Assembly: GCA_021018995.1 (NCBI GenBank)
Contig: CM037589.1
Location: 10,989,001 to 11,053,000, forward strand
DNA: 64,000 nucleotides
From: Chloranthus sessilifolius
Lineage: Eukaryota; Streptophyta; Magnoliopsida; Chloranthales; Chloranthaceae
Direction of reading: 5' to 3'
The translations under genes were made by a program, and so were the position numbers. Under the pieces are notes generated by a model. The model was not told the origin of the DNA. It saw nothing but the letters and a program-made list of their open reading frames with translations, and made no database searches. Positions within the stretch are counted from its first letter, which is position 1. Each line of letters opens with the position of its first letter. Of this stretch, positions 1,615 through 49,386 are shown piece by piece.

Positions 1615-1721
1615 TTAAAGAAAGAAGTCCTTAGCAGAACCTTCCTCCTCGTCCTCGTCCTCGTCATCCTCCTCAGGCTGGTAGGTAGGATCAGCCTCGT
1701 GCTCAGGGTCACGGTCAATAT
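1615..1721 (-). CDS. Conserved acidic C-terminal exon in LTR copy A
   Basis: On the minus strand a splice-acceptor-like TTGCAG is followed, after two leftover bases, by an open frame that ends at TAA (1615-1617). The peptide is very acidic: it contains DPTYQPEEDDEDEDEEE and ends SAKDFFL. The same acceptor phase, a DPxYxPEE-like core and an aromatic end recur in the other three LTR copies. The upstream exon was not found, and the function is unknown. It may be an LTR-borne gene or a remnant of one. Confidence refers to this being a real conserved coding exon. Confidence 0.45.
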
Positions 1722-2042
1722 CTGCAACTAAGACATGAAGTCGTAGAATGAGTTATCATCGAATCTCAACAGGGAAGTTTAAAGTACTACTTTATATGTT
1801 AGATTTCCAATTCACTTCTAGATGTATAAATTATAAAATTAAACACATTATATTTTACCTTGTTATATTCTAGCAACATTTAGCATAAGCAAGCAATAAA
1901 TCATGCGAATCATTGATCATGCTGACAGATTCATGTTGAACAAATATAAGGAATCATGTTTCATGTGGAACAAATATAAGGAATTGTGCTGACAAGGAAT
2001 CCTGCTAAAATAAGACATCAAACTGAATAAAAAATCAAGCTC

Positions 2043-2265
2043 TCGAGATTAAATGTCTAGCCCTTGAGCTATGTTAATTGGGTCACTAGCACCGAGAAAT
2101 TAACCCCTTGAGCTATGTTATCAAGGTCACTTGATACAAGACGAGTCAAGCCCCTGAGTTAAGTTAGCAAGGTCACTTGGTACAAGACGAGTCAAGCCCT
2201 TGAGCTAAGTTACCAAGGTCACACTTGGTACAAGATGAGTCATGCTCCCGAGTTAGCGGGATCAC
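2043..2265. repeat. Tandem repeat of about 55-60 bp inside LTR copy A
   Basis: Four imperfect units carry the phrases AGCCCTTGAGCTA, AAGGTCACTTGGTACAAGACG and GAGTCA. The block lies between the acidic exon and the palindrome cassette of this LTR. Copies B and D also hold unrelated tandem repeats in this interval. Confidence 0.75.
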
Positions 2266-3529
2266 TTGTTTCACAACAAGAACAAAGACGTGTACATGAT
2301 ATCAAAGATAACAGGACATGAACAATGCATGGTAACATGTATGTGAGCACCTCGTGAACAGATATCATATAGCAAAATTGATTTGAATAACTGAACTCAC
2401 ATGATCAAATATAACTACAATTAGCATAGTCATTGATAATCATGTATCCAAGCTGAACTAGTATCATAATTATGCAAAGCATATATTGAATCTGAAGTTC
2501 TTCTCATTAATATACATTACTATAAATTGGTCTAACACCATCAGTCATAGGCATATATCGAAAACTAGCACATCATCATAAATTAGGCTAGCATGTGTAT
2601 ACATTATTATACGTTGTAACTAAACTATACTTTCATTACGATTTATAAATCTTTTTCTAAATTACTGTAGTATCATCATGCATACACATTCATCTGTTGA
2701 TCTATATCATGTCATCTAAATTGGTCTGACAATATTCCTAATAGAATTACATATATCGGATCGAACTGATCTTATTGAGCTAATCTTATCAAAATCATAT
2801 ATCACTCAAACTGAACTACCATATGCTCATACATCGAGCTGATCTGATCGTAAACATGCATCAAATTAAACTGAACTAGCGTACTCGAACTGATCTGATC
2901 ATAAGCATGCATTCATGTAAGCGGGCTTAATATCATCACAACAGACGTATATATTAAATTGACTAACATCATTACATCAGACGTATAGCTTCACATGTAT
3001 ATACAATCAATATGTCGAGTTTAACATGGCCTTGATCGAAAAAAAGTATATATATAATAATGTACGATCCAAAATGCAAAGAAGAAACCAATTATAACGT
3101 AGCAAGGTAAAATTTCCTACCTTAGCTCACACGCGACTTGTTACGTATGCATGCACATTCAAACTAGATTCCTTGGTATGAGCTCGTCGTGTGCACCAAC
3201 ACCTATCATTTACATATACCATTTTAGTATATATATATATATGGTTTTCTGGGTCACCACAGACCTTACATAAATGCTCTACATGATCATTAATCCTAAA
3301 AATTAATATACCATACATATACATAGATTAAAGGTACCTCAGGACATGCACAAGTTAGACACAGGCTTGCCTCAACTTGTCACTAAATTTTGACCTATTA
3401 AACATTAGATTCATGAATTTGTTAATTCATGAAAGTTATAAGTCTCGTCGTCCCCTTTTCTAACGCATCAAGAATCGTGTCACTTGGAATTCGGGGTCAA
3501 AAGTGATGACTCAAATGCCGAACAGTGGT

Positions 3530-4680
3530 CAACGCATAGGGTTGCCGCGGCAAGCCACTCAGCCAACACCTTGCCATGGCAACTTAAGCCTTACTGCGGC
3601 AAGCCTGTCAGGCTTGGCTTGCTACGTGCTTTCTTACTCCTTTTTGAGTTTTTTTGACACAATTAGTCTGCTGGGTCTTTTATAATATAAAAATATAGTC
3701 GATTTCCTTGTATACCTTGCACAGGGAACCTAGTTTTAAGTATGAAATCTGCTAAGAAAGTTTCAGTATATTCAGTGGAAATTTGAACTCCGACACCTTT
3801 GTCAAATTGACTTTCTTTATGCTGTTGATTCGTCGGGCTCATGGAATCGACACCACAGTCCACTAATTAATAAGTCACTTGAACTAAGAGGTGGTTCGGT
3901 TTATGACATACCTTACGGTGACCTTGTGGTTATAATGACGGTGTCGAATGTGTATTGACGTCGCGTTCTCCGAGTCTTGTGAACTACTAAGGACTCTCCG
4001 AAATCAATGGTTCCTCGGTTGAAACTCGGCTAAAACTCATCGGGGTTCACTTTGTGATCTCAGGTTCTAAGGTGGTGTAGAAATAGCAGTAGTTTCTTTT
4101 CTCTACAATTTACTGAGATTTATTTAACTGGTTGTGATTTCATGTATCAATGGCTTTGATTTCAAGTATAAATGGCTGTGGATACATGTATCGGCAGAGT
4201 TGGGTTGCGGAGGAATGGAAGCAAGAAGACGAAGAAGGCTCTATTGTCTCTTATAATGGTTGGTGTCTACTTTGCGTGCATGTAGTCGACGGATGACTCA
4301 TGCATGCGTGGAGGGATTTGAAAGACTAAAATAGCTTATAAGCTTTTAAGGGATGAAATGCCCTATTGTGCACACATATATTTGCAAGGTGTATATGCAG
4401 ATAAGTCAAATAGGTTTTAGCTTTAATATCAAACTCATACACTGGTTTAGTGTATAAGCTTTATAGGTTTATCATATGTGTAAAACAAATGTACCTATCC
4501 GAGCTATATTGGATGACATAATTATTTAATTGTGTATTTTTAATATATAACAGAAATAAGTGTCTTATTATTATATCTAATCAGTCATCAGTTGTCGAGG
4601 CAACTACTGGTGCTTGCCTCAAGTGTCGAGGCAACCAATTGTGCTTGCCTCAGTTGTCGAGGCAAGACCATCAGACATTG
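3530..4680. repeat. Copy-A cassette of GGCAAG/CTTGCC inverted motifs
   Basis: Two clusters, about 3545-3620 and 4585-4672, repeat short inverted motifs. The first has GCCGCGGCAAGCCACTC, CTTGCCATGGCAA and CTGCGGCAAGCC. The second has TGTCGAGGCAA and TGCTTGCCTCA. The first cluster follows GGTCAAAAGTGATGACTC, comparable in place to the cassettes of the other LTR copies. Confidence 0.6.
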
Positions 4681-5006
4681 GTTGATATTTTTTTCATGCA
4701 CGATTGGGTTTTGGGTTAAAGGGTTGACACCCCTCAGTCTCTAGCGGTCCTATTCATCATTTAAAATTGTGTTACGAAAATTTTCATCTTGAATGAGGGC
4801 TCCATATATTTTAATTCGTACCAAATCAATGATCAATCATTGTTTCACTTAATAATTAATACTAGGTCACTAAGGTTCCACTATTTAACAATCATTATTA
4901 AAATTTTAAATCAATTCTTTGTATCACATTTTTGGCACAAGCCTGACCCTACTCTAGTTCATACCCGGTATTGTCAGGATAAAAATGTGACAACTGTTAC
5001 ACCAAA

Positions 5007-5670
5007 GCTCTCCCACTTTCTAGTTTTAGTTTGGACTCTTATTCTCTATCTTTTATATCATATTTAATAGGATTCTATTTTTATCCAAACCCAAAATAAC
5101 AAGGGTCAAACTAAAACAGGTTGGATCAACCTGTTTAAACCCAAAACGAGCCAAAACCTAACACCCTCCATTACTTGACTCTTAACAATCAACATCGAGG
5201 AAACCAAATTAAATAGTCTTTTGAAGGGTTCATAGGAAAGATGGAACAAGGAGATAAATTCAAAGTAATAATATGCCCAAAAATCGACTAAAAAAGAGGA
5301 AAAAACTTATATCCAATATAGAAAAACCTAAAATCGAACAAAAATACCCTAGACTCGACAAAAAAACCCTCAATTTTGATTAGCAAATAATAAAAAACCT
5401 AGATTGCTTAACAGAAAACCCAAGGATTGAATAAGAAAACCTTATATTGCTAATAAAAAAATCATAGAATTTGTTGCATAATCACAGCAGAGAAGATTCA
5501 TAATTTTTTTTCATTTCCGTCTAGTAGCAAATTGGGCGTGTCGATTCGTCTTCAAGGTTCACTCCCGCTTCGGCTCCAAGCACAAAATAAGAAATTTGGC
5601 AAATTTTAGGTTTTATATGTATGATGCAACTATGAGGGTATAATTTGTAATTTCAAACATACTTAATATT
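5007..5670. other. Unassigned intergenic sequence
   Basis: AT-rich DNA containing the short inverted repeat ACAGGTTGGATCAACCTGT and several AAAACCC-containing direct repeats. I see no gene or recognisable element. Confidence 0.5.
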
Positions 5671-5678
5671 TATAATTA

Positions 5679-6052
5679 AGGAGCCATTACTTGCACTCAC
5701 TTTTTAAGTGATTGTACCAAGGTTAAAAAAAGACTTTGTATTTTAGGGACATGTGACATGTGAAAACGCAATTTGGGTAGTCTAATTTAAAGTCCACGAT
5801 CTATAAGATCCTTAGTAGATAAGATTGACATGAAATATAATTTTCATCATGTGATTGAATATAATCAAAGTCTACTATTTGATTCAACTGCTGACAACAA
5901 TAGATCATATGATAAATATCGTGTTTTGCTTCAACCTTATCCACTAAGGATCTATAGATCATAAATTTTCAATCACACGGCCTAGATTGCGTTTTCCCTA
6001 AAATATAAAGCCTTTCTTTAACCTGGATGCAATCACTTAAAAAGGGCTCCCT
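5679..6052. mobile_element. Hairpin MITE, AGGGAGCC family, copy 1
   Basis: The left half (from AGGAGCCATTACTTGC) and the reverse complement of the right half (from AGGGAGCCCTTTTTAAG) match along most of their length, so the element can fold into one long hairpin. It is flanked by a perfect 8-bp duplication TATAATTA (5671-5678 and 6053-6060), which fits a non-autonomous hAT-type MITE. It has no coding capacity. The element at 16241-16636 is of the same family. Confidence 0.85.
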
Positions 6053-6060
6053 TATAATTA

Positions 6061-6705
6061 TTTTATCAACTGAAGCAACGACCTATAATTGGGATGCAGC
6101 TAATGGCTCTCTATAGGAAAGGCCTTGGAACAGATATATCTGCAGCCCTCGGAAATTGCAAAATTTTGACTTTCACAATAGTTCTTTTTCATAGGAATGC
6201 ATGCAGTTAGGAATCGGCAAGTTCCAAGGGATTCGGATATGGCCGACTCCAAATCCCGTTCAACTAGTTGGACTTACCATTCTCTGCATAATTACAACCG
6301 ATCATGGATACTATAAATATATAAACTGTATATTTTTTGGGACTTGCATGTGTCGCGTACAACACTATTTAACACTATTTAATCCGTCTGATTTGAAAGC
6401 CATTAGGTAAAAATCTTTGGTACCAAAGATTGGCCCGAAAACAGTCTCTATCATCTAAACCAAAGAGTATGCCATAAAATAAAATTATTAGCTTTGATTA
6501 GAGAGTGTATTTTGTGCCAAAATACATGGTAGAGATATAAAATAAAATTATTAGCTAAGTTGGTATTCCATCCGGCACAGGTCCTAAAATATCAAATCTT
6601 TCTTTTTAAACCTTTCGTCAACCACACAACTCTTATGTGCAAGTAGTAGCTAGCTCCCAATAATAAATTATAGATATTTTTGTCATATAAAGAATATATT
6701 TATGT
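6061..6705. other. Unassigned sequence with a short direct duplication
   Basis: No gene is seen. The phrase GAGATATAAAATAAAATTATTAGC and its near copy ATAAAATAAAATTATTAGC occur at about 6530-6555 and 6473-6492, indicating a local duplication. Confidence 0.4.
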
Positions 6706-7089
6706 TTGGTGGGTAGGACTGTCAAAGGGTCGGAGTCAAGATCAAAATTTTGGCCGAAATGATCAAAATTTCAGTCGAAATTATCGATTTCGGTCCCCAC
6801 CGAAATGATAATTTGGGACCGAAATTTCGGTCATCAAATGTATGTAATTGAAATTTCGGTCCCCTCCGAAACTGAAATTTTGATTATTGATCGGGGTGGC
6901 TAATAATTTAGCTACATCAGCGCTCAAATTCCTTCCTCGTTATTGCCCTGGCTTTGATGATCAACCCTTTTTCATTTGAGTTTTGATCTTTAGCAATCTT
7001 GGCCCGGCCCTTAATGGGCTAACGCCAAATTTTGAGGGCGGGCAAGGCTTGGGCCATTAAAATAAAAGCCCTGGAATTTAGGGCCAACC

Positions 7090-7445
7090 CAAGATTATAT
7101 ATAAATAGGGAGCCGGTTTCGTCCTCCATGGAGTGTCCTCCAAGATGTCATGGAAGTCCACGTGACACCCAAAGAACTATTTTGGTCCTACATAGAGCAT
7201 AGCGGGATGGGTTAGCTAGATCAATTTTTTAAACAAAATTTTTGTTTTAAGGCTTGCGTCAAAGTTTTTTTATTTCAATGGTTCATATTTTAAGGCTCAC
7301 AAAATACATGGTAGAGATGACTTTTCAAACTTTTTTTCTAAATGTGATCTACACAATGCATTTAGTGTCTCACTGCCAATTTGAGGTTGTCCATAATCTT
7401 GGAGGGCGCTCAAGGGTCCTCCAATGGAGGACAGAAGCCTTTTTC
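7090..7445. mobile_element. Possible hairpin MITE remnant
   Basis: The left part has GTCCTCCATGGAGTGTCCTCCAAG and the right part has CTTGGAGG, GGTCCTCCAATGGAGGAC, giving opposed arms about 250 bp apart. GAAGTCCACGTG is shared with the related piece at 10233-10545. The ends are not precise. Confidence 0.4.

Positions 7446-8749: not shown

Positions 8750-8751
<2 letters not shown>

Positions 8752-8793
<42 letters not shown>
8752..8793. repeat. (TA)n microsatellite
   Basis: Uninterrupted TA dinucleotides following GGTGCCCA. A second TA run at 8986-9036 follows the same GGTGCCCA word, so the microsatellite is part of the larger repeat. Confidence 0.95.
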
Positions 8794-8801
<8 letters not shown>

Positions 8802-8982
8802 TTATTTTTAAAAAGCCAAATTATCAGCCGATAATTTGAAGGCTGATAATTTTGGGTTTACAAAAAAGAATCATTGGGCACCGAAATATCGGTTGGGACC
8901 CAAACCGAATATGATATTTGCACCGAAATTTCGGGATTTCGATTGAAAATACCGGAAGAAATGTCGGCCGATATTTTGGTGC

Positions 8983-8985
<3 letters not shown>

Positions 8986-9053
<68 letters not shown>

Positions 9054-9056
9054 TTA
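8986..9056. repeat. (TA)n microsatellite followed by a T run
   Basis: About 25 TA dinucleotides followed by about 20 T residues. It occupies the same place in its repeat unit as the run at 8752-8793. Confidence 0.95.
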
Positions 9057-10193: not shown

Positions 10194-10195
<2 letters not shown>

Positions 10196-10226: not shown

Positions 10227-10227
<1 letters not shown>

Positions 10228-10232
10228 GGAAC

Positions 10233-18472: not shown

Positions 18473-18477
18473 TACAT
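18473..18477. repeat. Copia target-site duplication TACAT (left)
   Basis: It is identical to TACAT at 25733-25737 on the other side of the element, which fixes the insertion borders. Confidence 0.9.
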
Positions 18478-18722
18478 TGTTGAGAACACTGAGAAGAATC
18501 TATAACACACAATCTTGAATGAAAAGTTCTATCTGTTTTATTGATAACAAACTGCAAACTTATAAAACCTTTTACAAAGGGATAAAGTCAAAATAACAGC
18601 ACACGTTTGCAACACCCTAAAACGTGGTAACAAACTAACAAAAACTACTAGTCCCTTCAGAATAGGACTTATTAACAGACTGATTAACTAAAAGATTTGA
18701 ATAATGACTAACAATCTTATCA
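18478..18722 (-). repeat. 3' LTR of the copia element
   Basis: It runs from TGTTGAGAACACTGAG to CTTATCA on the plus strand. It differs from the 5' LTR by about ten substitutions and one short indel over 245 bp, so the insertion is not recent. Confidence 0.93.
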
Positions 18723-18733
18723 TTCCCTCCCTT
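18723..18733 (-). promoter_or_regulatory. Polypurine tract of the copia element
   Basis: On the minus strand the sequence is AAGGGAGGGAA, directly against the 3' LTR. It is the expected primer site for plus-strand DNA synthesis. Confidence 0.85.
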
Positions 18734-21700
18734 AAACTGTATGCAGAATGCATTCAATTTATATTAGGAGCTTCACACACGCCCAGCAAACTACGAAGCT
18801 TCAAAAACACCTCCAACCTGAGCGGCTTCGTCATAATGTCAGCTAGCTGGTCTTCAGTATTACAATGATTCAAATCAATCACACCATCTTTTACCAGGTC
18901 ATGAAGAAAATGAAACCTGATGTCAATGTGCTTGCTTCTGCCGTGAAGAACAGGATTCTTGGAGAGTTTTATAGTTGAACTATTATCACACAGAATTGTA
19001 GTGCATTTCTCCTGTACATAACCAAGCTTTTCTAAAACCCTTCTTAAACAAACACACTGACAAGCGCATGAGGCAGCAGCGATGTACTCTGCTTCAGTGG
19101 TGGATAGGCTAACCACAGGTTGTTTTTTGGATGACCATGACACTGCTCCAGAACTAAACATGAATACACTCCCCAAAGTACTCTTGCGATCATCTACATC
19201 TCCAGCAAAATCACTATCTGAATAGGCTGTGAGTTGCTTACAGCCTCCTTTCTTATAGAAAATCCCCAGACCAATCGTTCCCTTCAAATATCTAAGCAAT
19301 CTTTTCGCTGCCAACCAGTGTTGCTATGTAGGACACGATATGAACCTGCTAATAAGACTCACACCATACATCAAATCAGGTTTGGTTGCAGTTAAGTACA
19401 TAAGACTGCCAACCACCTGTTTAAACACACTTGCATCAACCTTAGCTCCCTTTTCGTCCTTTGACAATTTGAAACTGGAACTATGGGGTTTTTCACTAAG
19501 TTGTTGTTGTTCATACCAAATCTTTCTAAAACTTCATGAGCATACTTTCTTTGACTCACATAAATCTCATCAGAATTTTGTAGTACTTCAACCCCCAGAA
19601 AATATCTCATTTTTCCCAAGTCAGACGTGTCAAATTCTAACATCATTGACTTCTTAAACTCTTTACACATGCTCATGTCATTCCCAGTAAAGATTAAATC
19701 ATCAACATAAGGACTGACAATTAAGAGCTTACCTCCTTCCTTCGACTTTGTGAATAGCGTGTGTTCACAATAACACTTTTCGAAGCCTTCTTTTGCAAAA
19801 TAAGCTTCAATTTTGTTGTACCAAGCTCATGGAGCTTGTTTGAGGCCCTACAGCGCCTTATTCAGCTTATAAACCTTGTGTTCCTCACCCTTCTTCTCAT
19901 ATCCCGAGGCTGTTGGACAAACACTTGCTCACTAAGCTCACCATGCAGAAATGCGCTCTTCACATCAAGCTGAAAAATCCTCCAACCTTGTTGAGCTGCT
20001 AGGGCAATTACCAAGCGTATGGTATCTAGTCTTGCAACTGGAGCATAAACTTCTGTGTAATCAATCCCATATTGTTGTGCATATCCCTTTGCCACAAGTC
20101 TAGCCTTGCACTTGTCTATCTCACCACTTTCATTGAGTTTTGTTTTAAAAACCCATTTAACTCCAATGGTCTTCACTCCTTCAGGTAGGATGGTCAGATC
20201 CCATGTTTTATTACGCTCAATAGCCTCAATCTCTACATTCATGGCTTCTCTCCAATTATTGCTCTTCACAGCTTCCTCGAAAGTAATGGGATCAGTTTCT
20301 GTGAGAATCATCATGGCACTCAAGTCTTCTTCTGACAAATCCTCTCCGATTTCATAGTCTTGCATCCAAAATGGAGCTCGTCTTGCCCTCCCTTCAACTG
20401 GACCTGAGGAATTCCCATCATGTGACTCACTGGAAGGTGAGCTGGTGCTGGAAGGTGAGCTGGTGCCACTTGAACCAGCTCCATTTGTGCCATTTGAGCC
20501 AACATCTTCATTCTCGTTAACTTTTGCTCCAAGTTCCCCTTCATTCTCAGCTTTATCATCTTCTTTTTCACTATCACTCCACTCTAGCATATCCAAAGCC
20601 TTTTCTTCCCTGCTCATGTTCCAATTCCAGCCCTTGTTCTCCTCAAAAACAACGTCCCTGCTGACAATTATTTTCTTAGAGACCGGATCAAACAATCTAT
20701 AAGCTTTCGACTAATCGCTAACTCCCAATAAAACACATTGAATGCTTTTGTCATCCAACTTGATTCTTTTCTGGTCTAGTACGTGCAGATGGGCCAAGCA
20801 CCCAAAAACTCTTAAATACTCTACTGTAGGCTTCATATCACTCCATGCTTCCTCTGGAGTTCTATTTTGCACATCTAAAGTAGGGCACCTGTTGAGGACA
20901 TGCACACACCATCTCACAGCTTCTGGCCAGAAAGCCTTTGGAACCTGCTTCTCAGTGAGCATACAACGCACCAAATTCATCACAGTCCTATTCTTTCTCT
21001 CAGCAACTCCGTTTTGCTGAGGAGTATAGGTTGTGGTTAATTGCCTGATTATGCCATTTGCCTTACAAAATTCTCCAAACTCATTTGAGGTGAACTCACC
21101 ACCTCTGTCAATCCTCAAACATTTAAGGCAGGCACCTGTTTCCTTTTCAACGCAAGCCTTATAACTTCTAAACATGGTAAGAGCCTCTGATTTTTCATGC
21201 AAAAAATAAATCCAAGTTTTACGACTAAAGTCATCGATAAAACTCAAGAAATACCTCTTGTTGCTGTTTGATGCAGGCTTAATAGGGCCACATATATCGG
21301 CATGTACCAGCTCCAGCTTCTGTGACGCCCTCCATAGACTTCTTTTTGGAATGGATTCCCTATGCTGCTTTCCAACCAAACACGTTGTGCATAACTTTGC
21401 AGGAGTTATAAAAGAAGGCAAACCACTGACCATCTTTTTGTATTGAAGAGTTCTCAACCCTTTAAAGCTTAAGTGTCCGAATCTACAGTGCCATAAATAA
21501 CTCTCATCTTCTGTCACAATTTGAAAACAAGTAATAGCTTTAGGCATCATTGCTGCGAGCACAACAAACATCCTGTTCGCACTCATCCCGGACTGAATGA
21601 TTAGACCCTTACTAGGATGATAAACTTTGCACTCCCCATGTTGAATCAGAATTGCCACACCTTTTTCTTGAAGCTGCCCCATAGTTAACAGGTTATTTTT

Positions 21701-22985
21701 CAACTCAGGAATGTTATAGACTTCAGAAATTACCTGAGTGATTCCATTCACTTGCATTCGATCGTTTCCTTTCCCCACCACAACCATCCTTGAGTTGTTG
21801 CCTAGTTTCACAGTTTGCCTGAATTGAACATCCAAATCCGAGAACCATTCTTTATTCCCACTCATATGATTACTACATCCTGAATCGAGGAACCAAATCT
21901 CTTCTCTCTTAGCATGGTTAAGTTCTAAATAAGACATTAATAGCAGCTCTTCTCCTTCATCTAGTTCTGCATAGTTGGTTCCCTTCTCCCAACTGGGACA
22001 CTCATACTTTAAGTGTCCTAATTTGTGACACTTAAAGCACTCGATAGTGGCCTTGTTGAAAGGTTGTCTGCCACGACCTCTTCCTCTTCCTTTGAACGTC
22101 CCTTGACCTCGTCCTCTGCTAGTGTTGTCTTCATGGGTGACTTTGAGAGCCTGTTCCTCTCCTCGATGGCCATTCATTCTTTGTTCATGGACCAGCAAAC
22201 TGCTCTGTAGCTCGTCAATGGTCAGTGTGTTCAAGTCATTGGACTCTTCAATGGAGCAAACCACATAATCAAATTTTGAAGTCATGGACCTCAAAACTTT
22301 CTCATTGATGATGGTTTGGCTCATTGTCTCACCATGAGCCTTCATTTTTTTGGCTATAGTGAGAGTACGAGCAAAGAAATTATCAACAGTCTGTCCCTCC
22401 TTCATGTGGAGAGTCTCAAAGTCCCTCCGAAGTGCTTGCAACTGTGCCCTCTTCACCTTGGTAGAGCCTTGGTATTTTTGTTTCATGGAGTCCCAAATAC
22501 TCTTTGATGTGTCTTTGTCAAGTATAGTCTCCATGATATTCCGGTCTATAGCTTGAAAAAGGTAATTCTTTACCTTTAAGTCCTTCAGCTTCTGCCCCTC
22601 GATCAATTTGCGTTGTGCTTCTGTGACAGCCCGGATTTCGGCACCCCGAAACCCGTGCCATCAGCACGATCATCTTGACCGTGCCCTTTAGCTAAGCACG
22701 GAACACTGGTATATCAAGCATAGAAAAGTATAATAAACGAGTTTGCAGAATTTAAATCTATATTAATTAACTTCCCAAAAGACAGTTCTACCCTCATGCC
22801 TCTGCATGAATGGAGAACCGATCCGAACCATCGATGATAGAAATCATCACGGATGGTTCGTCCCAAAAGAATAATCCCATCAATGTATATCTATATATAC
22901 ATGGTTTAAAACAGAATCAAGGCTTGACATACCAAGCCGTACAAAACCTCTCCAATAATCTCTCAAAGTGGCACAACGGAGTCCT

Positions 22986-23089
22986 CTAGAAGAAGTCCTC
23001 TGGAGGTGGCTCCAACTCTTCGCCGGCCGCAAGGTCCGACTCGCCGGGATCAGCGTCTCCTGAAGCCGCGGCAGCTGCTAATAGTGGAC
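22986..23089 (-). CDS. Conserved acidic C-terminal exon in LTR copy B
   Basis: Behind a minus-strand acceptor ACGTCGCAG the frame opens after two leftover bases, as in the other copies, and ends at TAG (22986-22988). The peptide holds SGDADPGESDL and GEELEPPPEDFF at its C-terminus. It is intact in this copy. The upstream exon is not identified and no family is recognised. Confidence 0.45.
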
Positions 23090-23534
23090 CTGCGACGTAT
23101 AGTCTATAGGGTGAGCTACATCCTAGCTCAATAGGGAACAAACACGGTTTGAACATATAAATTATGACTCACATGTATTCCATGATATGCTATGCATGAT
23201 GTGTCTATGCAGTTATTAGTAAAACAGATTAAAAGCATTTCGTTTTACTGTTGATTACTTATATTTTCATTTACTCATGAATGATGCTGAGAAGGCCTAA
23301 AGCAAAACTTAAACTTTCAACTTAAGTAATCCCCGAGCAATATAGCATCGAGCCCCGATGAGATACCCTTCATCGTCATCTATATAGACAGTTTTAATGT
23401 ATTCCCTGGGAATACCATATAGTACCCAAGCCCCTTTCCACAGGGATTGGTGGCGTTTCACTTGTCTCAATCAATACCCACGGGTGTGCTTACTATGTAC
23501 GGATAAGCCTCACTGGCCTACGGTTTCATCACCA

Positions 23535-23612
23535 GATCGCCACGGATATCCCGCCAGACGGTCACGGATATCCTGCCGTGTCAGTCGTGGATATCCCGCC
23601 ACGTCGGTGGGG
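23535..23612. repeat. Short tandem repeat CACGGATATCCCGCCA-type in LTR copy B
   Basis: Three to four units of about 22-25 bp read CACGGATATC(C)(C/T)GCC with AGACGGT, GTGTCAGT or ACGTCGGT linkers. It lies between the acidic exon and the palindrome cassette. Confidence 0.8.
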
Positions 23613-24129
23613 TAACCTATCAAACCTCAAATAACAAAAATATCGGTGCCTTACATATAGTTATTCACCGTGTAAGTGTGCTATCTTATATCAGTTAGGC
23701 CCTATCAAACATGATTCAATCCTTGGATACATCCCTGGGATGTATCCATTTACTTGCATCACACCTGATGCTCTTATCTCTTTACTTCTTCATCCCCTGG
23801 GGATGGCTCGTTAGTTTACTCTTATGAATATCACACACACACACTTTTCACAATTCTTTAAGCAGTAAAATATTTGAATGGAAATCTATATCACTACATA
23901 CATGCTCTTGTAAAATAAAGTACATGTTCAAGGTGTTCCCTACCTCAAGTCTTCATTCGATCATTGCATCAAGGTCCCACGTGGCTCCTTGTGCACTAGT
24001 CCACACGTACCACCTATGGTACCACATCACAGGTGAAACACATCACAAAGGATGCAATAAAGAAGGTATAAGATCCCCCAAGAATCTTAGAGTCAAACCT
24101 AAAAGTCAACATAGTTTATCTCAGTTCGA

Positions 24130-24590
24130 ACAGTCGAGTTTTCATTCGATTAATCGAATCCAATTTCGATTAATCGAAATTCTTCTTTTCGCAAAGCAAA
24201 TTCCTTTATTGACGAATTGAAGTTTTCATTCGATTAATCGAATCCAATTTCGATTAATGAAATCCTTCTTTCGCAAGGTAGACCTCGGTTCGAGCGATAA
24301 TGAGTTTCACAAGTTGATTAATCGATTCCAAATCGATTAATCGAAAACTAAAATCGATTAATCGAAATCCCATTTCGATTAGTCGATTTTTCCTCAAGTC
24401 ATTTCCTTCAACCCCTGGGATCCACTGGAGGTTCTCAGTCGATTAATCGATCCCCAAAACGATCAATCGAAATCCAAAGTCGATTAATCGAAATCAAATT
24501 CGATTAATCGAAATCGGGGTCCTCTGACCTTTCAACTTCTTGGCCAATTTCGATTAATCGAAACCCAATTTCGATTAATCGAAATTGTCA
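24130..24590. repeat. Copy-B cassette of CGATTAATCG palindromes
   Basis: More than fifteen copies of TTCGATTAATCGAAAT or close variants are spaced 5-25 bp apart. The core CGATTAATCG is a perfect palindrome. The cassette occupies the place held by different repeats in copies A, C and D. Confidence 0.9.
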
Positions 24591-25460
24591 GATTCAGCCC
24601 CTTTCGAGCTGTTCTTCCCAATCTTTTTCCATACTTTTTCTTCTATTTTTCTAAGCCATTATCCTAAGATTTAAACTATTTTCAACTACAACTTAAACCC
24701 TATAATCTATGCATTTTATTTACAAAAATCTTACCTTGAATATATCTCAAGTTGATTTCAAATCTAGGGTTGGAAGGCTAGGGTTTCCAGCTTTGTTCTA
24801 ACGGATCCCTTGCGCTGAATCAGCCTCTTTAATACTTGAATCCCTCTTCCAATCACCCACAATAACTCCTTGCTTAATCACCCTTTTTACTCCTCTCTCT
24901 CTCTTCTTTACTTCTCTCTCTCTCTTCTTTACTTCTCTCTCAACTACCAAACATCTATTTTAGGGTTATTAAACCCTTTTATCCCTCTCCTAGTTTGTGT
25001 GTTGGGCACATGCACCTCAATAGGTGTATGCGACTTCATATTTACAACACACACCACGCAATAATTCAAACTATCACATCTCGTCCGTTCATTTCATCCT
25101 ATACCAACTCTTGATCTCCTAATTGGTCAAACTTGTGACCAATCGGGCACGGATCCCGAGGTCATAGTTTTGCGTGATTTTTCGGGTTATTACAGCTTCT
25201 GTCTGTTCTGTTGCCACTACTGTAGAGAGAGATTGTGTCACCGCCACCGAAATCCCATTCTCTATGAGATCCCAATATTCCTTGGAACGGAGTAAGTTCT
25301 CCATCAGCATCGCCCAATGATCGTAATGTCCGTCAAATTTGGGAATGGCCAGCTGCACAAAATCACTGCTACTGCCCTCCGCCATTCTGCTTGACTCCCT
25401 TACTCTGAAAGAAAACTGCGATTTCTTTCCACACACACTCACAATCAGGCCCCCTGTGAT

Positions 25461-25475
25461 GGAGCTCTGATACCA
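25461..25475 (-). promoter_or_regulatory. Primer-binding site of the copia element
   Basis: On the minus strand the sequence is TGGTATCAGAGCTCC, complementary to the 3' end of initiator Met tRNA. It lies two bases from the 5' LTR. Confidence 0.93.
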
Positions 25476-25477
25476 AT

Positions 25478-25732
25478 TGTTGAGAACACTGAGAAGAACC
25501 TATAACACACAACCTTGAATGAAAAGTTCTATCTGTTTTATTGATAACAAACTGCAAACTTATAAAGCCTTTTACAAAGGGATAAAGTCAAAATAACAGC
25601 CCACGTTTGCAACACCCTAAAACATGGTAACAGACTAACAAAAACAACTAGTCCCTACAGAATAGGACTTATTAACAGACTGATTAACTAAAAGATCTGA
25701 ATAATAAACTGTTAACTCTAACAGTCTTATCA
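25478..25732 (-). repeat. 5' LTR of the copia element
   Basis: This 255-bp LTR begins at TGTTGAGAACACTGAG next to the primer-binding site and ends at CTTATCA before the TACAT duplication. It contains a short extra segment (about CTGTTAACTC) absent from the other LTR. Confidence 0.93.
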
Positions 25733-26104
25733 TACATTGCTTCTCAAATGTTACTTCACAAAAGGGTTGAAAATGGTGTTGTGTGAGAAGTAGCTTGAGA
25801 CAGCTTTTCAACAAAACACCATTTTCAGCTAAAGGTGGTCAGGGCTTTGGGGTGAAATGTGATTTTTGGAAAAGAGTTGCCAAAGAGCCTTGGAGCGCCT
25901 TTCGCTACCACATTGGATTTTAAGGTCCTCTAAACCAGTCAGCCTTTTAAATCATACTCCAATAGAATTTAGAACTTCAAAATGAAAGGAAATATCTTTG
26001 CCCCGTGGTTCATCTTAGGCAAACGATTTATTCATCAAAATATGTAATTGATTTTTGTTACTAATAAACAATGATACTAATCAAATCATATACATAATGA
26101 GCAG

Positions 26105-41665: not shown

Positions 41666-42651
41666 AACTATTAGGAATTGAAGATTGTTGAGTCATTCAG
41701 CCTTAGAATTAATAAATATGAACAGCAACTCACCTATCATCATTAGTTCATGATAAAAACAAATATCTAATGATGAAAAAATGCAATTTTTCTTTAAAAT
41801 GTGACTTTAATTCAAGAAATTAGACGTAGTGGCTTCCAATGACAGGTTCCACGAAATTAGACGCATAATATGTACGAATAAATGGTTAGCTGGGTACAAG
41901 TACCAGACATCACTATGACTTGGGCTTCTCATAAAGTTTGGGAAAGTTGACTGCAAAAAACACAATACAAATTTGCTACTTGTTCAAAGTAATTTCATCA
42001 GATTTTAGAAACGGGGAAATGTGGCAGCAATATTAGCACTTTTTAAGTGACTTCCATTAATGCTTATAAACAGGTTTCAACTTAGCACTCATTATTTTAA
42101 AAAGCGTTAGAATTAGGTAGCACAGCAGTTTAGAGTACTAAACAGGGTTGAAACAGAGCCATTGTTATAGGTATGTTTAACTATTGACATTATTTGGCGA
42201 ACACTGTTATTTTACTCGACAAGCAATGGCATTGTAAAGTTCCCCTCCCATGTTAATAGGAATTAGGTACAAGTAATACAAATCGACCTAATGTTATAGG
42301 TAATATATAGTGTGACGACCCGACTTTTCCAATCCCTAAGGTATAGGAAAGGTCGGCTCATCAACGTATTGATTTCTCAATAAGCCGTAACAAACAGAAG
42401 CCAGCAACATAGCAATGATCTAAAGACAGAGGCAAAGCATATAATAATCCAAAAATAAAAACTTTCTATAACAAAAAATATATCACTGTAAGGAACCAAG
42501 AAGAACCGCCGGTGATGGCCAATCCAACACCTAAAATAGTGGTTCACAATAAAGGTTCCTCGAGTGATATCAAAAGAACCAAAATAATGGCCTAGGGCGC
42601 AATAGTCAAAATAATATTCTAACAAAATTACCAAAAATAAGGGATCTAGGA

Positions 42652-42746
42652 TCAAGGGAAAAACTCCTCAGCTGGTGTGTCCAATTCCTCCTCGGGAATG
42701 TAATCGGAGTCCTCCAGATCCTCTGACCCAAGGTCAGTCTCAGCAC
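42652..42746 (-). CDS. Conserved acidic C-terminal exon in LTR copy C
   Basis: A minus-strand acceptor TACGTCACAG is followed, after two leftover bases, by AETDLGSEDLEDSD and then IPEEELDTPAEEFFP before TGA (42652-42654). There are no internal stops. Acceptor, phase, acidic content and aromatic end agree with copies A, B and D. Confidence 0.5.
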
Positions 42747-43559
42747 CTGTGACGTATAGTCGATGGTGAGCTAACAACAAAGCCCAATTATGATTTTCAA
42801 ATGATGCTTTGCAAACTAAAATTCCAGTTCTAATCCTGAGTCAAAACTGATAACATAAATCTGATGTGTTCGAAATCTTCTGAATTAGCATGCTTCTTGT
42901 CTTAAATTTATAACTTAATTTTATCTCCCAAATTTCCTATAGCATGAGAGTGGACTACGTGACCGACGGGAAACCCTACTGACCATCGTCGTTCATGAAC
43001 CCATTTTCTGAAGTGCAACAGGCCCTTACTCTATGAGAGAAACTTGTACCAAAGTAATACCATCAACACGGTTGGTAGAATCTAAGGCATCGTTCGTATG
43101 TACCTCAAATCGAATGCAAATGCTAACATATATCAAAGCTTATTATTCATAACTGATTTCTGATATTTTTCAAAGTTCTGATTCAAAAATTTACTGAGGT
43201 TCTGAGGTTCAATTTACGAAGTTCTTAGTCATAAAAAAGTTTCCAATTTTCAGATTTGTGTCATATATTCAGAGTTTTATTCATGCTGTGTGTAACAGGA
43301 TTCCAAAATTTATGCTTCTTAAATGAAATAGTCAAAACAGTTATACTTATAATTCAATGCAAATTAAATATAGGGTTCCCCTACCTCAACAAGGAAGACT
43401 CAACAACAAGCATAAACAATCCTCACAAAGAACTCCCAATATTCAAAACCTACAAGGATTAACACTATCAATGTTAATATAAGACCAAAAGTCAAACCAA
43501 AAGCTTGCCGAGAAAATATCTGACAAATATTTAAGGATCTGAAACAGGGCAAAATTCGA

Positions 43560-43800
43560 CCCTCGAATTCAAATTCGTGGGTCGAATTTGAAATTCGATG
43601 GTTGAATTCAATTTCGACACTCGAATTCCAAAAATCTCATCAGGCATAAAAATCAGAAAATCGACCCTCGATTTTCAATTCGATGGTCGAATTCCAAATT
43701 CGACCCTCGAATTGGAAATCGACCCTCAAATCTTGAAAACTACCTCAGGCATAAAAATTCACTTTTCGACCTTCGAATTGGAATTCAACCCTCGAATTTC
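43560..43800. repeat. Copy-C cassette of TCGACCCTCGAATT motifs
   Basis: About fourteen occurrences of TCGAATT, AATTCGA and TCGACCCTCGAATT appear in both orientations. It sits after AAAAGTCAAACCAAAAG, in the same relative place as the cassette of copy B. Confidence 0.85.
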
Positions 43801-46800
43801 TTCAGGTCTGTGGCTGTCAAATTTTCATGTGCGGATTCTTTCTCTCTTATTCAACCACAGCCATCTGATCTTATTTAAAATAAACACCATATACTTATAC
43901 AAAACAGAAATTGAATTCATAAGACAGAAGGAGGTTTAAAGGCCTACCTCTTGTAGTTTAAACTGTTGCTTCCGTTGCACCAAAACACGCACCGGAACCA
44001 ATCTTAAAGGCTTAACGGTTTAGAATCTCCAATCAGTCCATCATAAACCTTTCTCTATTGCACAGATCAGAACTACACAGAGACATCCTCTCCCCGATCC
44101 TTCTCTTCCAATAGTCCAAATATATCAGAAATCAAGCACAAGGCTAATCAATTGTTGAGATGGGGAGAGTAATTCTCAAGGTCTCTAGATCTAGGATTAA
44201 AATGAGCTAAGGCTTTAGAGGTTTATGAATTCCAACGAGAGAGAGAAGTTAAACTTCTCTTTCAATCTCTCTTATAACAAAAAAAACAAACCAACTAATA
44301 TCTAGATTTTATATTTTTGCAACTTATCCACTTAATTTGCAAAAAAATGTCCCATGTTGAACACATACACCAATCCCTATCATGTAAGTCATTGATTACA
44401 TGACTTGCACACCTCTCGAGACAAATTCCTTTGGCCATTAGTTTTATTATAGCCTTAGCTTACCCAAAAACCTAAAAATCCCTCAATAATTTTTTGGACA
44501 CGCTTACCGAGGTAAACGAAATATAGACCAAAAATATCAGGGATATTACATATAGTGGGCAAGAATTACATTGATGCAAAGCTTAATAAAACCAAATTGT
44601 AAAAACTAATCAATTGGCATATGCAATCCCAATTGATTTGCATGCCCATTCTGTGAACTTTTACTGATTTGCATGCCCATTCTGTGAGTCTCCAGAGGCT
44701 TGACCATTTGGACAAAGGAGATTGACCTGAGTGCTGTCACGGGTGACTAAAACAGCTCGTATACGAACAATTGTTGTGATACAAGCATTCGAAAGTAAAA
44801 TATAAAGGGGAGACTAATGAGCATTATTGAGTATGCAGAGGGAATTAGCATTATTATGAGACTGGATGATAATGCTATCATTTCAGTTCTAATTAGCTCA
44901 GACAAATTTTAAAACAATCACTCAACGCCCAATGAATGAAAATTCATGGAACAGAGAAGCATTTGCAAGGAATGATCATAAAGCACATTTCTAAATTAAT
45001 TCCACACATAACTCTTACAACTATTGGCATTAGATTAACAATCACCCTTAATAATACATACATGTGGGTATTGGAATCAACCAAACAATAAACCAAATAT
45101 GTAATGCAGTTCAATCAAATCACGTAATAAACACGGAAGTAACTACTCTGAGTTTCTAGAGGCTAATGCTAGAAAAATGGCTATCATTTTCCAGATAAGG
45201 AGCTCATAAGAGGGAAAACTGAGACTTGGGTTGTATTGCCCTCTTTATGCATTTTGATTCCCATTCAGAATTAGAGAAAAACTAGGACTACTAAACATTC
45301 CACTCATTTATTGGGTGTTGTCCAAATCTATAGATAATTGAAAGAACATGTGAAAGTTAAGATCTAATTAAATCAAAAATCGCCAATTTCGAGCATGCAA
45401 ATTATCACCAAATGTTTGCTTGTATTTATCATCAGATCAAACTATTCAAATATGGAAAGACAAATGTGTAGAAAAATTTCCCAAATTATTCCTCAATGCT
45501 ATGCTTTACCAATATGTACTACAAACTCAACATATAATCCACGCAACACAAACTACGCACATCCCATGAGAATGGGTATCTTTAAAAATACAACTAGTTG
45601 AGTGCAAAACCACGTAGGATTGTAACTGACTCTTCTCACTGACATTATAAGATGAATGTTAGCAGCTGATACATATTTAAGTCCACAACAGCTGCACTCA
45701 AATTCGGAACAATCAAAAGCTATGATTCAGCTTAGGTCAACAGAAATAAATACACTGTTAATCATGGTTATCATTTTTTTTATGTTTTCTACAGTAGTAA
45801 TGCCGCGGAGCTGTCTATACATTCATTCCACAGTTTGCACTAAAGCCATGACTGCAAATTTCACTAATTTATCCAATACTATATTAGCAAAAAGCTCAAA
45901 TTTTAACTAAATGTGGAGCTACTATAACTTGTCTAGCATACTGAAAGGTTAACAGCTGCAGTTTTCATTAATTAATGCAATAAGTTTGAGACTTCATAAC
46001 ACTCAAGCAATTACATTATACAAGTAAATAAATAGATGGGCAACAATCGCAGGTACAACAAGCATATAAAGAGCAAACTTTAGAATGTGTTTTCACTCTT
46101 TTGTTAATCCATTAATTCTTGTTAAAACGATAATCTATTCATGTTAGGTAGATACCAAGGAACACAAGTAACCAGTTGTGCCTAGACTCATTGCACAGGT
46201 ACCAAATAGCTTCAGCATCCATATTTATTCACTGCTTTTACTTTTCATCCAGGGCAAGTTTCAGCCACTACACTTCTATTGTTTAATTTTGGCTTATAAC
46301 ATCTCCATGATCAAATTTCAGTCACTCATTTTCTGTGGTCCTCAACATGCTTACAATTGGCCATATACCATAAGATAAGTAACCTCAGCATACATATTAT
46401 TACCCCACTACATTCTCATTCCTTCAAAGGTAAACCTTATGTCTTCAATTGAATATGAACCATTTGAAACTCCCTGATGGACATGACTACACTACTATAC
46501 TTATGATACGATAGTCAACCTGTAATTTTTCATTAGGCATATAATTAAATTGACAAAAGATGAGTACATGCAGCCTTGGGTTATGTGTTGTTTCAACCAA
46601 TGTTTCAAAAATCAGGCAAGACATAGAACTGCCAAATGCACTGGTCCGGTTGGACTGGGTTGAACCGGGTTCGACCGGATTGGTTCATTAAAAAATATTT
46701 AAAAACTATTTATGAGGTTTTACATAAAACTTTAGATGTGTATGCAAAAAACTGATGAACAAACCGGATCCACTGAAAAAATGGCCCAAATAATCGATTT

Positions 46801-46927
46801 GGGGTAATTTAGGCACATCACACAGGAACCTAAAAATTGCTCCATCCTTCAGTTTTAGAATCTCTAATCAGTCCATTTATCATATGTGAAAGCATGTTTA
46901 GGTTATTGTTTGAGTTGAAGAACATAC

Positions 46928-47025
46928 CAAGAGAAATTATTCCAAAAGAAATCAATGTTCCAACTGCTCCAAACAGCATGATTGTAATGAAATTGCTGAA
47001 AAACTGCTTCTTTTTTACTTGGAAC
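46928..47025 (-). pseudogene. Single exon of an NHX-type Na+/H+ antiporter
   Basis: The 98-nt minus-strand exon encodes FQVKKKQFFSNFITIMLF then GAVGTLISFGIISLG, a transmembrane segment highly characteristic of vacuolar NHX1/NHX2 exchangers. It has an acceptor ATAGTAG and a donor TTG/GTATGT at positions that fit the introns of plant NHX genes. The exons that should flank it (NAG upstream, DYLAIGAIFAATDS downstream) are not found nearby. It is therefore an isolated captured exon, not a gene. The reading frame is intact. Confidence 0.8.
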
Positions 47026-47211
47026 CTACTATAAGAAAAAATAAATAACAAAATAAAAAATAAGAAAGGATCCAAATACAAATTATAGAGCTCATTCTAA
47101 GGATTGAAGTTAGATGTTCAATCTCCACTTAGCATAAAAGAAATAATTATATCAATCTCAAAATTTGAAACAGTTATTAGTCTCCAAAAAAAGAGGCAAA
47201 GAAATAATAAT

Positions 47212-47216
<5 letters not shown>

Positions 47217-47288
<72 letters not shown>
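47217..47288. repeat. (TA)n microsatellite
   Basis: About 35 TA dinucleotides just upstream of the GH17 fragment. Confidence 0.95.
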
Positions 47289-47290
<2 letters not shown>

Positions 47291-47347
47291 TTATTCTACA
47301 ATCAACCTTCCTTACATTTTTAGGGGAAATCTTCAAAATTCATGCAG

Positions 47348-48138
47348 GTTCTCTGCTTCCAGCGGCTTTTCCAACTTCGATCGGCATCAACTACGGCCAG
47401 ATTGTGAACAATCTCCCGTTGCTGGAAAACGTCGTCTCGATCCTACAATCAATCGGCGTCAACAAGGTGCAGCTCAATGATGCAGATCCACGGGTTCTCC
47501 GTGCATTCGCAAACACCGGAGTCGAGTTCATCGTCAGCCTTGGCAACGAGCAGCTCGCAAGAATGGGAGATCCGTCGAACGTCGTGGCTTGGGTAAAGAC
47601 GAATGTGCAGACCTACTTGCCGGAGACAAAAATCACCTGCGTCACCATCGGTAATGAGGTAGTGACCGGCGAAGACAAGGTTCTGATCCGAAACCTTCTC
47701 CCCACGATGCGGAACATTCAGGCGACACTCGTGACGCTAGGGTTAGATAAGCAAGTGAGCATCACAATAGTGCACTCGTTAGCCATGCTTCAGACATCTT
47801 ATCCACCATCCGCAGGATCTTTTCGGAGTGATCTGACGGACGTGATTTCTCCCATCTTGAGCTTCCAATCGACAATCGGAGCAACTTTCCTCATCAACGC
47901 TTATCCGTTTTTCGCATACAAGGGGAATCCGAAGCGAGTCCCTCTGGATTTCATGTTGTTTCAGCCGAGCCAAGGGGTTTTGGATCTGATCTCGAATCTC
48001 TGCTACGACAACATGTTGTTCGCGCAGATCGACGCTATTTACTCGGCATTGGCGAAGCTAAGGTACTCGCACCTACCGGTGCAGATCTCGGAGACAAGGT
48101 GGCCGTCGAAGGGCAACAAAGATGAGGCTAGGGTTTGA
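47348..48138 (+). pseudogene. Glucan endo-1,3-beta-glucosidase (GH17), 3'-truncated
   Basis: This exon-2 fragment starts after an acceptor CATGCAG and reads SLLPAAFPTSIGINYGQIVN through DADPRVLRAF, TIGNEV (general-acid Glu, codon 47656), LINAYPFFAYKGNPK, LFAQIDAIYSALAKL and ISETRWPSKG (nucleophile Glu, codon 48091). GH17 enzymes cut beta-1,3-glucans (callose and fungal cell walls) in the apoplast. The signal-peptide exon is not found. The C-terminal third of the barrel (about 80 residues after WPSKG) is missing: the frame runs into unrelated sequence and stops at 48136. The near-invariant Gly of ETGWPSKG is Arg here. The remaining 260 codons have no stop, so loss of function is recent or the piece is transcribed as part of its carrier. 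Confidence 0.85.
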
Positions 48139-48463
48139 GATGGATTGGACGAACTCGTGCAAAGGGGTTGTTGAGAGAGAGGAAGAGGAGAGAGGCTAGG
48201 GTTTGAGAGAGAAAAAAAAAAAGATGAATAAGGGAGACGGTAGTTTTGTTTGTATAATAAAGAGAGAAAGTTTAGAAATAAGGCCCGATAGATTTGGCAC
48301 GTGATGAGGGTTAGAGTTGGACGTGATAAGGATTAATTAATTAAACCACCGTTTTATTATAATAAATCACCGATTTTGACAGTAGATTATTATATTATTG
48401 CTTGGACAGTGATTCTTTATATATTTACAGGTGTGGTTTATATGCCATTTTCAAATAGTGTTA

Positions 48464-48965
48464 TTAGCTATTTTTTCAAAAGGAGAATTTGGTCACTATA
48501 GTTATAAGTTATAACCATCCATAAAAATACATCCTATGTTTCCCTGGGCCGCTATATAGATTTGGAATCAACTAGAAAATTACCTTAAAGAACTACTTTC
48601 ATCTTGTGGTTAAGAGGTTACCACGATCGAAAAAAAGAATTGTTAAAACAAATTTGAATAATTGTACAATAGTCATTCATTTTATGGTGCTTCTTTTGGT
48701 TTCTACCCACAAGAAGGAGATGATTTGTTGATGCCCATTAAGATTTTTCGATTTAGACAATCACCTCACGCACCACGTGACGTCACACGACACCAAAATG
48801 TTGCCACATTTACAAATTCAATAACCCATTTACACTTAATTGTGGACGTGTTCGTTACCCTATATTACCTCTAAAATGCTTAATGAGAGTTGGTATAGTA
48901 GGCGACACCCATTTCACATGGCGATCATACATGTCAAATTTGTTTTTTCCATGACTAGGTATCTT
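48464..48965. other. Unassigned spacer between the CACTA element and LTR copy D
   Basis: No gene or element is recognised. Confidence 0.4.
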
Positions 48966-49291
48966 AGAGTATGATAGCCCGAATTTTTCAGGAAAATTCG
49001 GACTGTCGAGTCGCAAATCACAATCGAAATACATAACACTTTGTACAATCATAAAAATACGAAAATCAAAGCAAATAAAACGTAACATATGTAAGAACTA
49101 AAAATTCTTTTTTATATAGAGCATATGAATAAAACCTACAAAATAAATTGTCGGTGATTGTCAACCATCACCTAAACAGTGATATACAAAAATATGTACA
49201 AATTTAATTTTATCATTCTACAAAAATTATTGGACGTACCAAGTCCAAACTCAAAAGTAAACTCAGACTATACTAAGTCTAAAGCCGAAGC

Positions 49292-49386
49292 CTATGGGTA
49301 GAAATTCTCAGGCGGCAAATCCTTCTCTACCTCAGGTATGCAATCAGGGTCCGTCACAAGCTCGGAATCCTATCCCAAATAGACAC
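49292..49386 (-). pseudogene. Acidic C-terminal exon in LTR copy D, with a stop
   Basis: The acceptor TACGTCACAG and phase are as in copy C. The translation runs VYLG, an in-frame TAG, DSELV, then DPDCIPEVEKDLPPENFYP before the terminal TAG (49292-49294). The internal stop shows decay, but frame and C-terminal motif are preserved. Confidence 0.45.

What the first reader, a model, noticed from the sequence alone, without database searches (positions are those of the whole stretch)
1615..49386. Four solo LTRs encode the same acidic peptide behind the same splice acceptor
At 1615-1721, 22986-23089, 42652-42746 and 49292-49386 (all minus) an acceptor (TACGTCACAG in C and D, variants in A and B) is followed by two leftover bases and then one frame ending in an acidic, aromatic C-terminus: DFFL, EDFF, EEFFP, ENFYP. 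A core like DPxYxPEEE is shared. Nucleotide sequence around it is much diverged, yet phase, acidity and stop position persist. An LTR is not expected to hold a conserved protein-coding exon, which suggests an undescribed LTR-borne gene or that these units are not simple LTRs.
Basis: partly seen in the sequence, partly recalled or inferred. Interest (0 to 1): 0.82.

Follow-up and report, generated by a model that had tools for sequence, protein, structure and literature searches.

The report
Coding last exon inside retrotransposon LTRs
In this plant genome, several families of a common jumping element carry, inside their repeated ends, a short protein-coding last exon that selection has kept; it may give the element's Gag coat protein an acidic tail by splicing, which has not been shown yet.

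Summary
The four peptides are real: each lies behind a splice-acceptor-like site, in one phase, in four LTR families of one 2.17 Gb plant genome. Between families C and D the flanks are at shuffled level, yet the exon frame stays similar (0 of 1000 shuffles), pN is far below pS, and the 30 bases before the exon are 97% identical. So this is a conserved coding exon. Full-length elements are Ty3/gypsy chromoviruses. In families A, B and C an AT-rich, intron-like gap of 122-197 bp separates gag from protease; its donor leaves one base and its acceptor begins GT, the phase the LTR exon needs. One B copy lacks exactly this gap. Best reading: the gag donor can skip pol and join the 3' LTR acceptor, giving a short Gag mRNA with an acidic, aromatic tail. 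That splice is inferred: no genomic copy of the junction was found, family D's gag-only elements do not fit the phase, and 23 of 30 D copies are broken. Known parallels are Ogre, EVADE and BARE splicing; for a coding terminal exon inside a plant LTR my searches found no paper.

The parts
1251..5001 (-). Unit A, LTR (about 3751 bp), TGTAACA...TTGTCACA
   Evidence: Ends by sequence; TSD TTTGG/TTTGA 4 of 5; a relative matches up to 4665 (L097); 5' end not independently confirmed
1615..1721 (-). LTR exon A, acceptor TTAGTTGCAG, frame open to TAA
   Evidence: 19 of 20 copies examined keep the length in frame
22622..25194 (-). Unit B, solo LTR 2573 bp, TSD GAAGC, nested in a copia element (LTRs 18476-18723 and 25476-25733)
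   Evidence: copia gag, integrase and RVT_2 domains in the interrupted element
22986..23089 (-). LTR exon B, acceptor GACTATACGTCGCAG, stop TAG
   Evidence: the 40 best-scored genome copies are 100% identical over 145 bp
24734..24735 (-). Donor-like boundary in the B LTR leader, TTCAAG|GTAAGATT
   Evidence: splicing not shown
42311..44550 (-). Unit C, solo LTR 2240 bp, TSD CTATA
42652..42746 (-). LTR exon C, acceptor GACTATACGTCACAG, stop TGA
   Evidence: 14 of 14 copies examined open
48970..52083 (-). Unit D, LTR (about 3.1 kb), 3' end degenerate (..ATCATA), no TSD recognised
   Evidence: alignments to L098 and L100 both begin at 52080
49292..49386 (-). LTR exon D, acceptor GACTATACGTCACAG, stop TAG; in-frame TAG at 49370-49372 in this copy
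42747..42776 (-). 30 bases before exon C, branch-point-like CTCAC plus acceptor (GTTAGCTCACC..GACTATACGTCACAG)
   Evidence: 97% identical to D's 49387-49416 while flanks are at shuffled level

Best explanation
The peptide is the coding part of a terminal exon carried in the LTR of a group of plant Ty3/gypsy chromoviruses: acceptor, about 30 codons, stop, 3' UTR, end of the LTR. In a full-length element the copy in the 3' LTR can be joined to an upstream donor. The most likely donor is the one at the end of gag (..DVIQ G|), which also serves the short gag-protease intron. Unspliced RNA gives Gag with a short tail; removing the short intron gives Gag-Pol; joining the gag donor to the 3' LTR exon gives a compact Gag mRNA whose stop codon lies near the RNA end and whose product carries an acidic, aromatic tail behind the zinc-knuckle region. 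Shown: the exon, protein-level conservation between families, its place in the LTR, the gag-protease gap with matching phase in A, B and C. Suggested: the gap is an intron (one exact loss). Inferred: the splice from gag to the LTR exon, the role of the tail, and the Gag to Gag-Pol balance.
For: Protein-level similarity of C with D-like copies in the exon frame: score 74 (L092) and 52 (L053), 0 of 1000 shuffles each. C-L092 pS 0.76, pN 0.32, Fisher p 5e-4; L092-L048 p 2e-4. Acceptor stretch 97% identical C to D, flanks at shuffled level. Full-length elements: protease, RT, RNase H, Tf2-1-like SH3 above cut-off; chromodomain just above cut-off in C, just below in B; integrase core below cut-off in B; tRNA-Met-type PBS. 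Gag-protease gap with a donor leaving one base and an acceptor starting GT in B (L035, L039), C (L016, L011, L014) and A (L096); its removal leads ..VIQ or IIK into GTL.. of protease; gap AT 76-78% against 49-55% in gag. One B copy (L102) lacks exactly the 169 bp gap and reads open from gag into protease. The LTR exon needs the same phase.
Against: No transcript seen. Genomic copies of the gag-LTR exon junction: 0 in B and 0 in C, exact and with up to 3 mismatches; weak evidence, since such RNA would lack PPT and U3. In B two other phase-1 donor-like sites exist (integrase, ORF3) and C's ORF3 has one. C's gag donor is weak by my recalled matrix (2.3). D-like pieces L098, L100 and L101 match gag but not pol, and in L098 and L100 the donor-like sites after the zinc knuckle are not in phase. 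A 1-base deletion shared by 9 of 32 D copies breaks the exon, so that subgroup multiplied without it. In A copy L094 the protease-side edge is changed. Two C hits first taken as gap losses were not. The one B loss has AGGT at both ends, so a plain deletion is possible.
Confidence: 0.5

Rival explanations
1. The LTR exon is a genuine coding terminal exon, but its partner is another internal exon, such as the extra ORF3 between pol and the 3' LTR, or integrase.
For: B has phase-1 donor-like sites in integrase and ORF3; C's ORF3 has one in three copies, scores 4.0-4.1 (L017, L010, L013); C's ORF3 itself ends in an acidic GDF tail.
Against: By eye the B and C ORF3 sites do not lie at matching places; C's ORF3 has its own stop; no sign of use of these donors.
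Confidence: 0.2
2. The acceptor serves a leader intron inside the 5' LTR (donor mid-LTR, as CAAG|GTAAG in B); the reading frame is secondary.
For: Strong donor-like site in the B LTR, 7.0 by my recalled matrix, after a TATA-like box; same acceptor.
Against: The only ATG between the TATA-like box and the donor in B opens a 4-codon frame, so protein-level conservation would be unexplained; the B copy that lost the gag gap keeps the LTR between donor and acceptor; 0 genome copies with exon B preceded by other bases under the pattern used, which excludes C at -5 and G at -4.
Confidence: 0.12
3. The frame is a by-product: a conserved RNA or DNA element in R, with acidic codons from GAN repeats and shared descent only.
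For: Within families codon positions diverge alike (A 0.115/0.097/0.105, D 0.164/0.151/0.196); A's in-frame length changes are in GAN repeats; 23 of 30 D copies are broken, two of them only in the last codons.
Against: Between families synonymous change is near saturation while the protein stays similar; of the flanking windows only two frames of one downstream window (L053) show some similarity (p 0.003 and 0.045), and for L053 the other exon frames show none.
Confidence: 0.1
4. The LTR exon is a captured last exon of a host gene that is now evolving without use.
For: Host-like terminal exon layout.
Against: Fewer protein than synonymous changes between LTR families; presence in four families.
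Confidence: 0.05

Closest known systems
[quoted passage not shown]
   Same: A region between two polyprotein ORFs that is an intron, spliced from a subset of transcripts so that the whole polyprotein can be translated (PMC6317226, section 13 read; the original papers were not read, one look-up not held)
   Different: Here the element is a chromovirus, the gap lies between gag and protease, and a coding terminal exon sits in the LTR
EVADE short GAG (Ty1/copia, Arabidopsis)
   Same: Alternative splicing for a Gag-only mRNA, as reported in PMC12786077 (passages read; the original paper was not found)
   Different: There splicing removes the protease domain and a premature stop follows the junction; the passages describe no LTR coding exon
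BARE spliced Gag RNA (Ty1/copia, barley)
   Same: Spliced subgenomic RNA for Gag only (PMC3735527, abstract and section list seen)
   Different: Other superfamily; the abstract mentions no LTR exon
CRM group A chromoviruses
   Same: Part of the protein is coded inside the 3' LTR (CR motif; PMC3059260, passages read)
   Different: There the coding region simply extends into the 3' LTR and gives an integrase tail
MMTV sag and lentiviral nef (recalled, no call)
   Same: Coding sequence in the 3' LTR
   Different: Complete or overlapping genes of retroviruses, not a short acidic terminal exon

Membership tests
LTR retrotransposon, solo LTR | TG..CA ends and 5-bp target-site duplication | tested here: met
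   B and C exact TSD; A 4 of 5; D degenerate ends and none recognised
Ty3/gypsy chromovirus | Order gag, protease, RT, RNase H, integrase, chromodomain | tested here: met
   C: RVP_2, RVT_1, SH3_Tf2-1 and Chromo (25.3 bits, cut-off 25.1). B: RVP_2, RVT_1, RT_RNaseH, SH3_Tf2-1 above cut-off; integrase core and Chromo below cut-off. A: homologous to B gag, protease-RT and RNase H pieces in tblastn
Ty3/gypsy chromovirus | tRNA-Met-type primer binding site | tested here: met
   TTGGTATCAGAGC one base after the LTR in L014, L098, L101; that this is the tRNA-Met motif is recalled
Tekay clade | RT phylogeny within Tekay | not tested
   No reference set held; the name rests on recall
Ogre-like intron strategy | Intron in the polyprotein that is spliced in some RNAs | tested here: inconclusive
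   Phase-matched gap in A, B, C; one exact loss in B; no RNA
EVADE/BARE-type short Gag mRNA | Spliced Gag-only transcript | not testable with these tools
   No transcript data; no genomic junction copies
CRM group A | Coding region running into the 3' LTR with CR motif | tested here: not met
   pol ends with a chromodomain-like end and a stop well before the LTR in B and C

The most novel reading that the evidence does not exclude
A group of plant chromoviruses carries a portable terminal exon in its LTR: by one very long splice from gag to the 3' LTR it makes a compact Gag mRNA with a selected acidic tail, and every solo LTR left behind keeps a ready-made acceptor, coding exon and RNA end that host genes could capture.
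Probability: 0.42. Interest if true: 0.75.

Novelty: new variant of a known kind. Interest (0 to 1): 0.62.

Why it matters
How plant Ty3/gypsy elements make more Gag than Gag-Pol is, to my knowledge, an open point; a review says plant LTR elements generally lack introns and names Ogre and EVADE as notable exceptions (PMC12786077, passages read). A coding exon in the LTR is copied twice with every insertion, so it would also seed genomes with acceptor-exon-end cassettes. It can be tested directly in long-read cDNA data.

Tried and rejected
Rejected: an LTR-internal two-exon gene (no in-phase open first exon in three LTR pieces; B leader ATG opens 4 codons only). Rejected: the two C hits as gap losses; L104 and L105 keep the gap. 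Led nowhere: the acceptor motif in viral contigs, 0 matches; relatives of a B protease-RT piece in viral contigs and genome contigs, none confirmed, so nothing is known here about other plants. Rfam and tRNA scans of the window: nothing. Within-family codon positions are not informative. My RT motif search used a wrong pattern and is disregarded; one search replaces it. For D gag-only pieces I found no convincing phase-1 donor in L098 and L100.

Rows dropped and choices made: genome searches score only the 40 best candidates, so the copies are the nearest to the window's, which favours open frames. One search kept only matches covering the whole exon (20 A, 30 D, 14 C, 20 B; some are the two LTRs of one element); L092 and L093 fell out and were used from the alignment. 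Protein tests used chosen copies (L053, L092, L055 and the window's A, B, C). One search computed dN and dS for 11 pairs (6 C against D-like, 5 among D-like); I tested 4 of them, with rounded counts; ratios among the D-like pairs were 0.14 to 0.53. The donor matrix is recalled, not trained.
Full report
What is there. The window lies in a 2.17 Gb genome (G000:C6:10989001-11053000), a plant by its genes and elements (my reading; species not given). The four acceptor-plus-frame units were read directly. B is a 2573 bp solo LTR with the 5-bp duplication GAAGC inside a copia element; C is a 2240 bp solo LTR with duplication CTATA. A is about 3.75 kb with a 4 of 5 duplication; D is about 3.1 kb, without a recognised one. 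The D copy in the window has an in-frame TAG.

Copies. The genome search scores only the 40 best candidates. C: 40 matches, 2392 candidates; B: 40 matches, all 100% identical over 145 bp, 1545 candidates; D: 40 matches, 429 candidates; A: 40 matches, 2180 candidates. At least 40 identical B copies point to recent spread. Pairs of matches on one strand 9.3-10.4 kb apart mark full-length elements of A, B and C.

Frame fate within families (nearest copies only). B: 20 of 20 copies examined have the same protein. C: 14 of 14 are open. A: 19 of 20 keep the length in frame, with length steps of 3, but these fall in GAN repeats; 15 of 20 have neither internal stop nor frame loss, five of them with the last stop changed. 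D: 12 of 30 have lost the frame (two of them only in the last codons) and 11 of the other 18 have internal stops, leaving 7 of 30 open. Within A and D the three codon positions diverge about equally (A 0.115, 0.097, 0.105; D 0.164, 0.151, 0.196). This is what dead copies do and neither supports nor refutes selection on active ones. In A the exon (0.105) and the 30 bases before it (0.098) vary less than upstream (0.155) and downstream (0.228); in D the exon (0.169) is not less variable than upstream (0.146). A 1-base deletion shared by 9 of 32 D copies means that a broken exon did not stop that subgroup from multiplying, perhaps in trans.

Between families. Window C against window D: identity upstream (-150 to -30) 0.63 against 0.64 after shuffling, downstream 0.60 and 0.63 against 0.65, exon DNA 0.61 against 0.61, but the last 30 bases before the exon 0.97 against 0.61. 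The exon proteins of C and of D-like copies L053 and L092 have the same length, 30 residues, and score 52 and 74 with no shuffle of 1000 reaching it; windows up- and downstream do not, with one clear exception (one frame 190-285 bases after the exon start, L053, p 0.003) and one marginal (p 0.045); the other two exon frames of L092 also beat shuffles, at lower scores (34 and 42), while those of L053 do not. For C against six D-like copies pS is 0.68-0.84 and pN 0.32-0.43. Fisher p is 5e-4 and 5e-3 for two of these pairs, 2e-4 and 0.03 for two pairs among D-like copies. B matches C (p 0.0005); A matches L092 (0.0065; copy L055 0.0005) and L053 (0.02); A-B, L055-B, A-C, L055-C, L055-L053 and B against both D-like copies do not pass 0.05. 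I read this as purifying selection on the peptide at family level and base-level conservation of its acceptor; the number of independent comparisons is small.

The elements. Pieces of C give protease, reverse transcriptase, SH3_Tf2-1 and Chromo; B gives protease, reverse transcriptase, RNase H and SH3_Tf2-1 above cut-off, integrase core and Chromo below it. The primer site follows the LTR. An extra sense ORF lies between pol and the 3' LTR in B and C with a weak Transposase_32 match, 22.8 bits against a cut-off of 45 in both. Tekay is my recall, not a test.

The gag-protease gap. In B (L035, L039), C (L016, L011, L014) and A (L096) the gag frame leaves its homology after ..VIQ G or IIK G, and protease resumes further on; in most copies a stop intervenes. 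The left edge is AAG|GT with one base left over, the right edge AG|GT followed in phase by codons for T-L. In A copy L094 the right edge is changed. The gap is 169, 122 and 197 bp (L035, L016, L096) with 76-78% AT (gag 49-55%). One B copy, L102, lacks exactly 169 bp here and is open from gag into protease, against 627 exact copies of the 21-base donor string. A deletion between AGGT repeats could also do this. The two C hits are not losses. An intron of the Ogre type is thus likely but not proven.

The link. The LTR exon starts with the same two leftover bases in B, C, D (GT; AT in A) and so fits the gag donor; chance alone gives a fitting phase one time in three. In B the gag donor is one of three phase-1 donor-like sites with score 5 or more and 25 or more open codons in the internal pieces; in C it scores low. 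A gag-LTR exon RNA would lack PPT and U3, so absence of genomic copies says little. The B copy without the gap keeps its LTR between leader donor and acceptor, so the leader was not spliced in that round. D-like pieces L098, L100 and L101 match B gag but not B pol or ORF3 (L099 matches neither), while L016 and L096 match pol; the donor-like sites after the zinc knuckle in L098 and L100 are out of phase. This counts against the link or shows that these lines no longer use it.

How it may work. The stop codon of unspliced gag is followed by kilobases of RNA, which plants tend to treat as faulty (recalled); a splice to the LTR exon would give a normal-looking last exon. The tails have 9 to 17 acidic and 0 to 2 basic residues and would sit behind the zinc-knuckle region, where they could mask RNA binding, as an acidic spacer is thought to do in yeast Ty3 Gag (recalled, inference).

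Literature. Nine searches listed no paper that I recognised, from titles and abstract starts, as describing a coding terminal exon in a plant LTR; only open-licence papers are held. Read: PMC6317226 section 13 and passages; passages of PMC3059260 and PMC12786077; abstract and section list of PMC3735527; the rest as listings.

Noticed in passing
24130-24600 (B), 43550-43830 (C), 50920-51100 (D), 3560-4665 (A); L036 1190-1790; L017 430-625: Each LTR carries short palindrome-like words of its own sequence (for example TCGATTAATCGA in B, TTCGAnnnTCGAA in C, CTCGCGCGAG in D); B and C have a second such array between pol and ORF3. Read by eye.
   Followed up: no
L017 729-2257; L036 1983-2690; L040 1909-3144: Extra sense ORF before the 3' LTR with a sub-cut-off Transposase_32 match; in B a TATA-like stretch lies just upstream.
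   Followed up: partly
L098, L100, L101: D-like elements with gag but no match to B pol in the pieces read, possibly gag-only non-autonomous elements.
   Followed up: partly
18476-25733: Copia element (minus strand) with 92% identical LTRs, interrupted by solo LTR B.
   Followed up: yes
L104, L105: Two C copies whose protease acceptor reads ATCCAAG, the same letters as the gag donor side; cause unknown.
   Followed up: no
56605-56880 and 58620-59002: Two tandem repeat blocks of period about 20, related to each other in both orientations.
   Followed up: no
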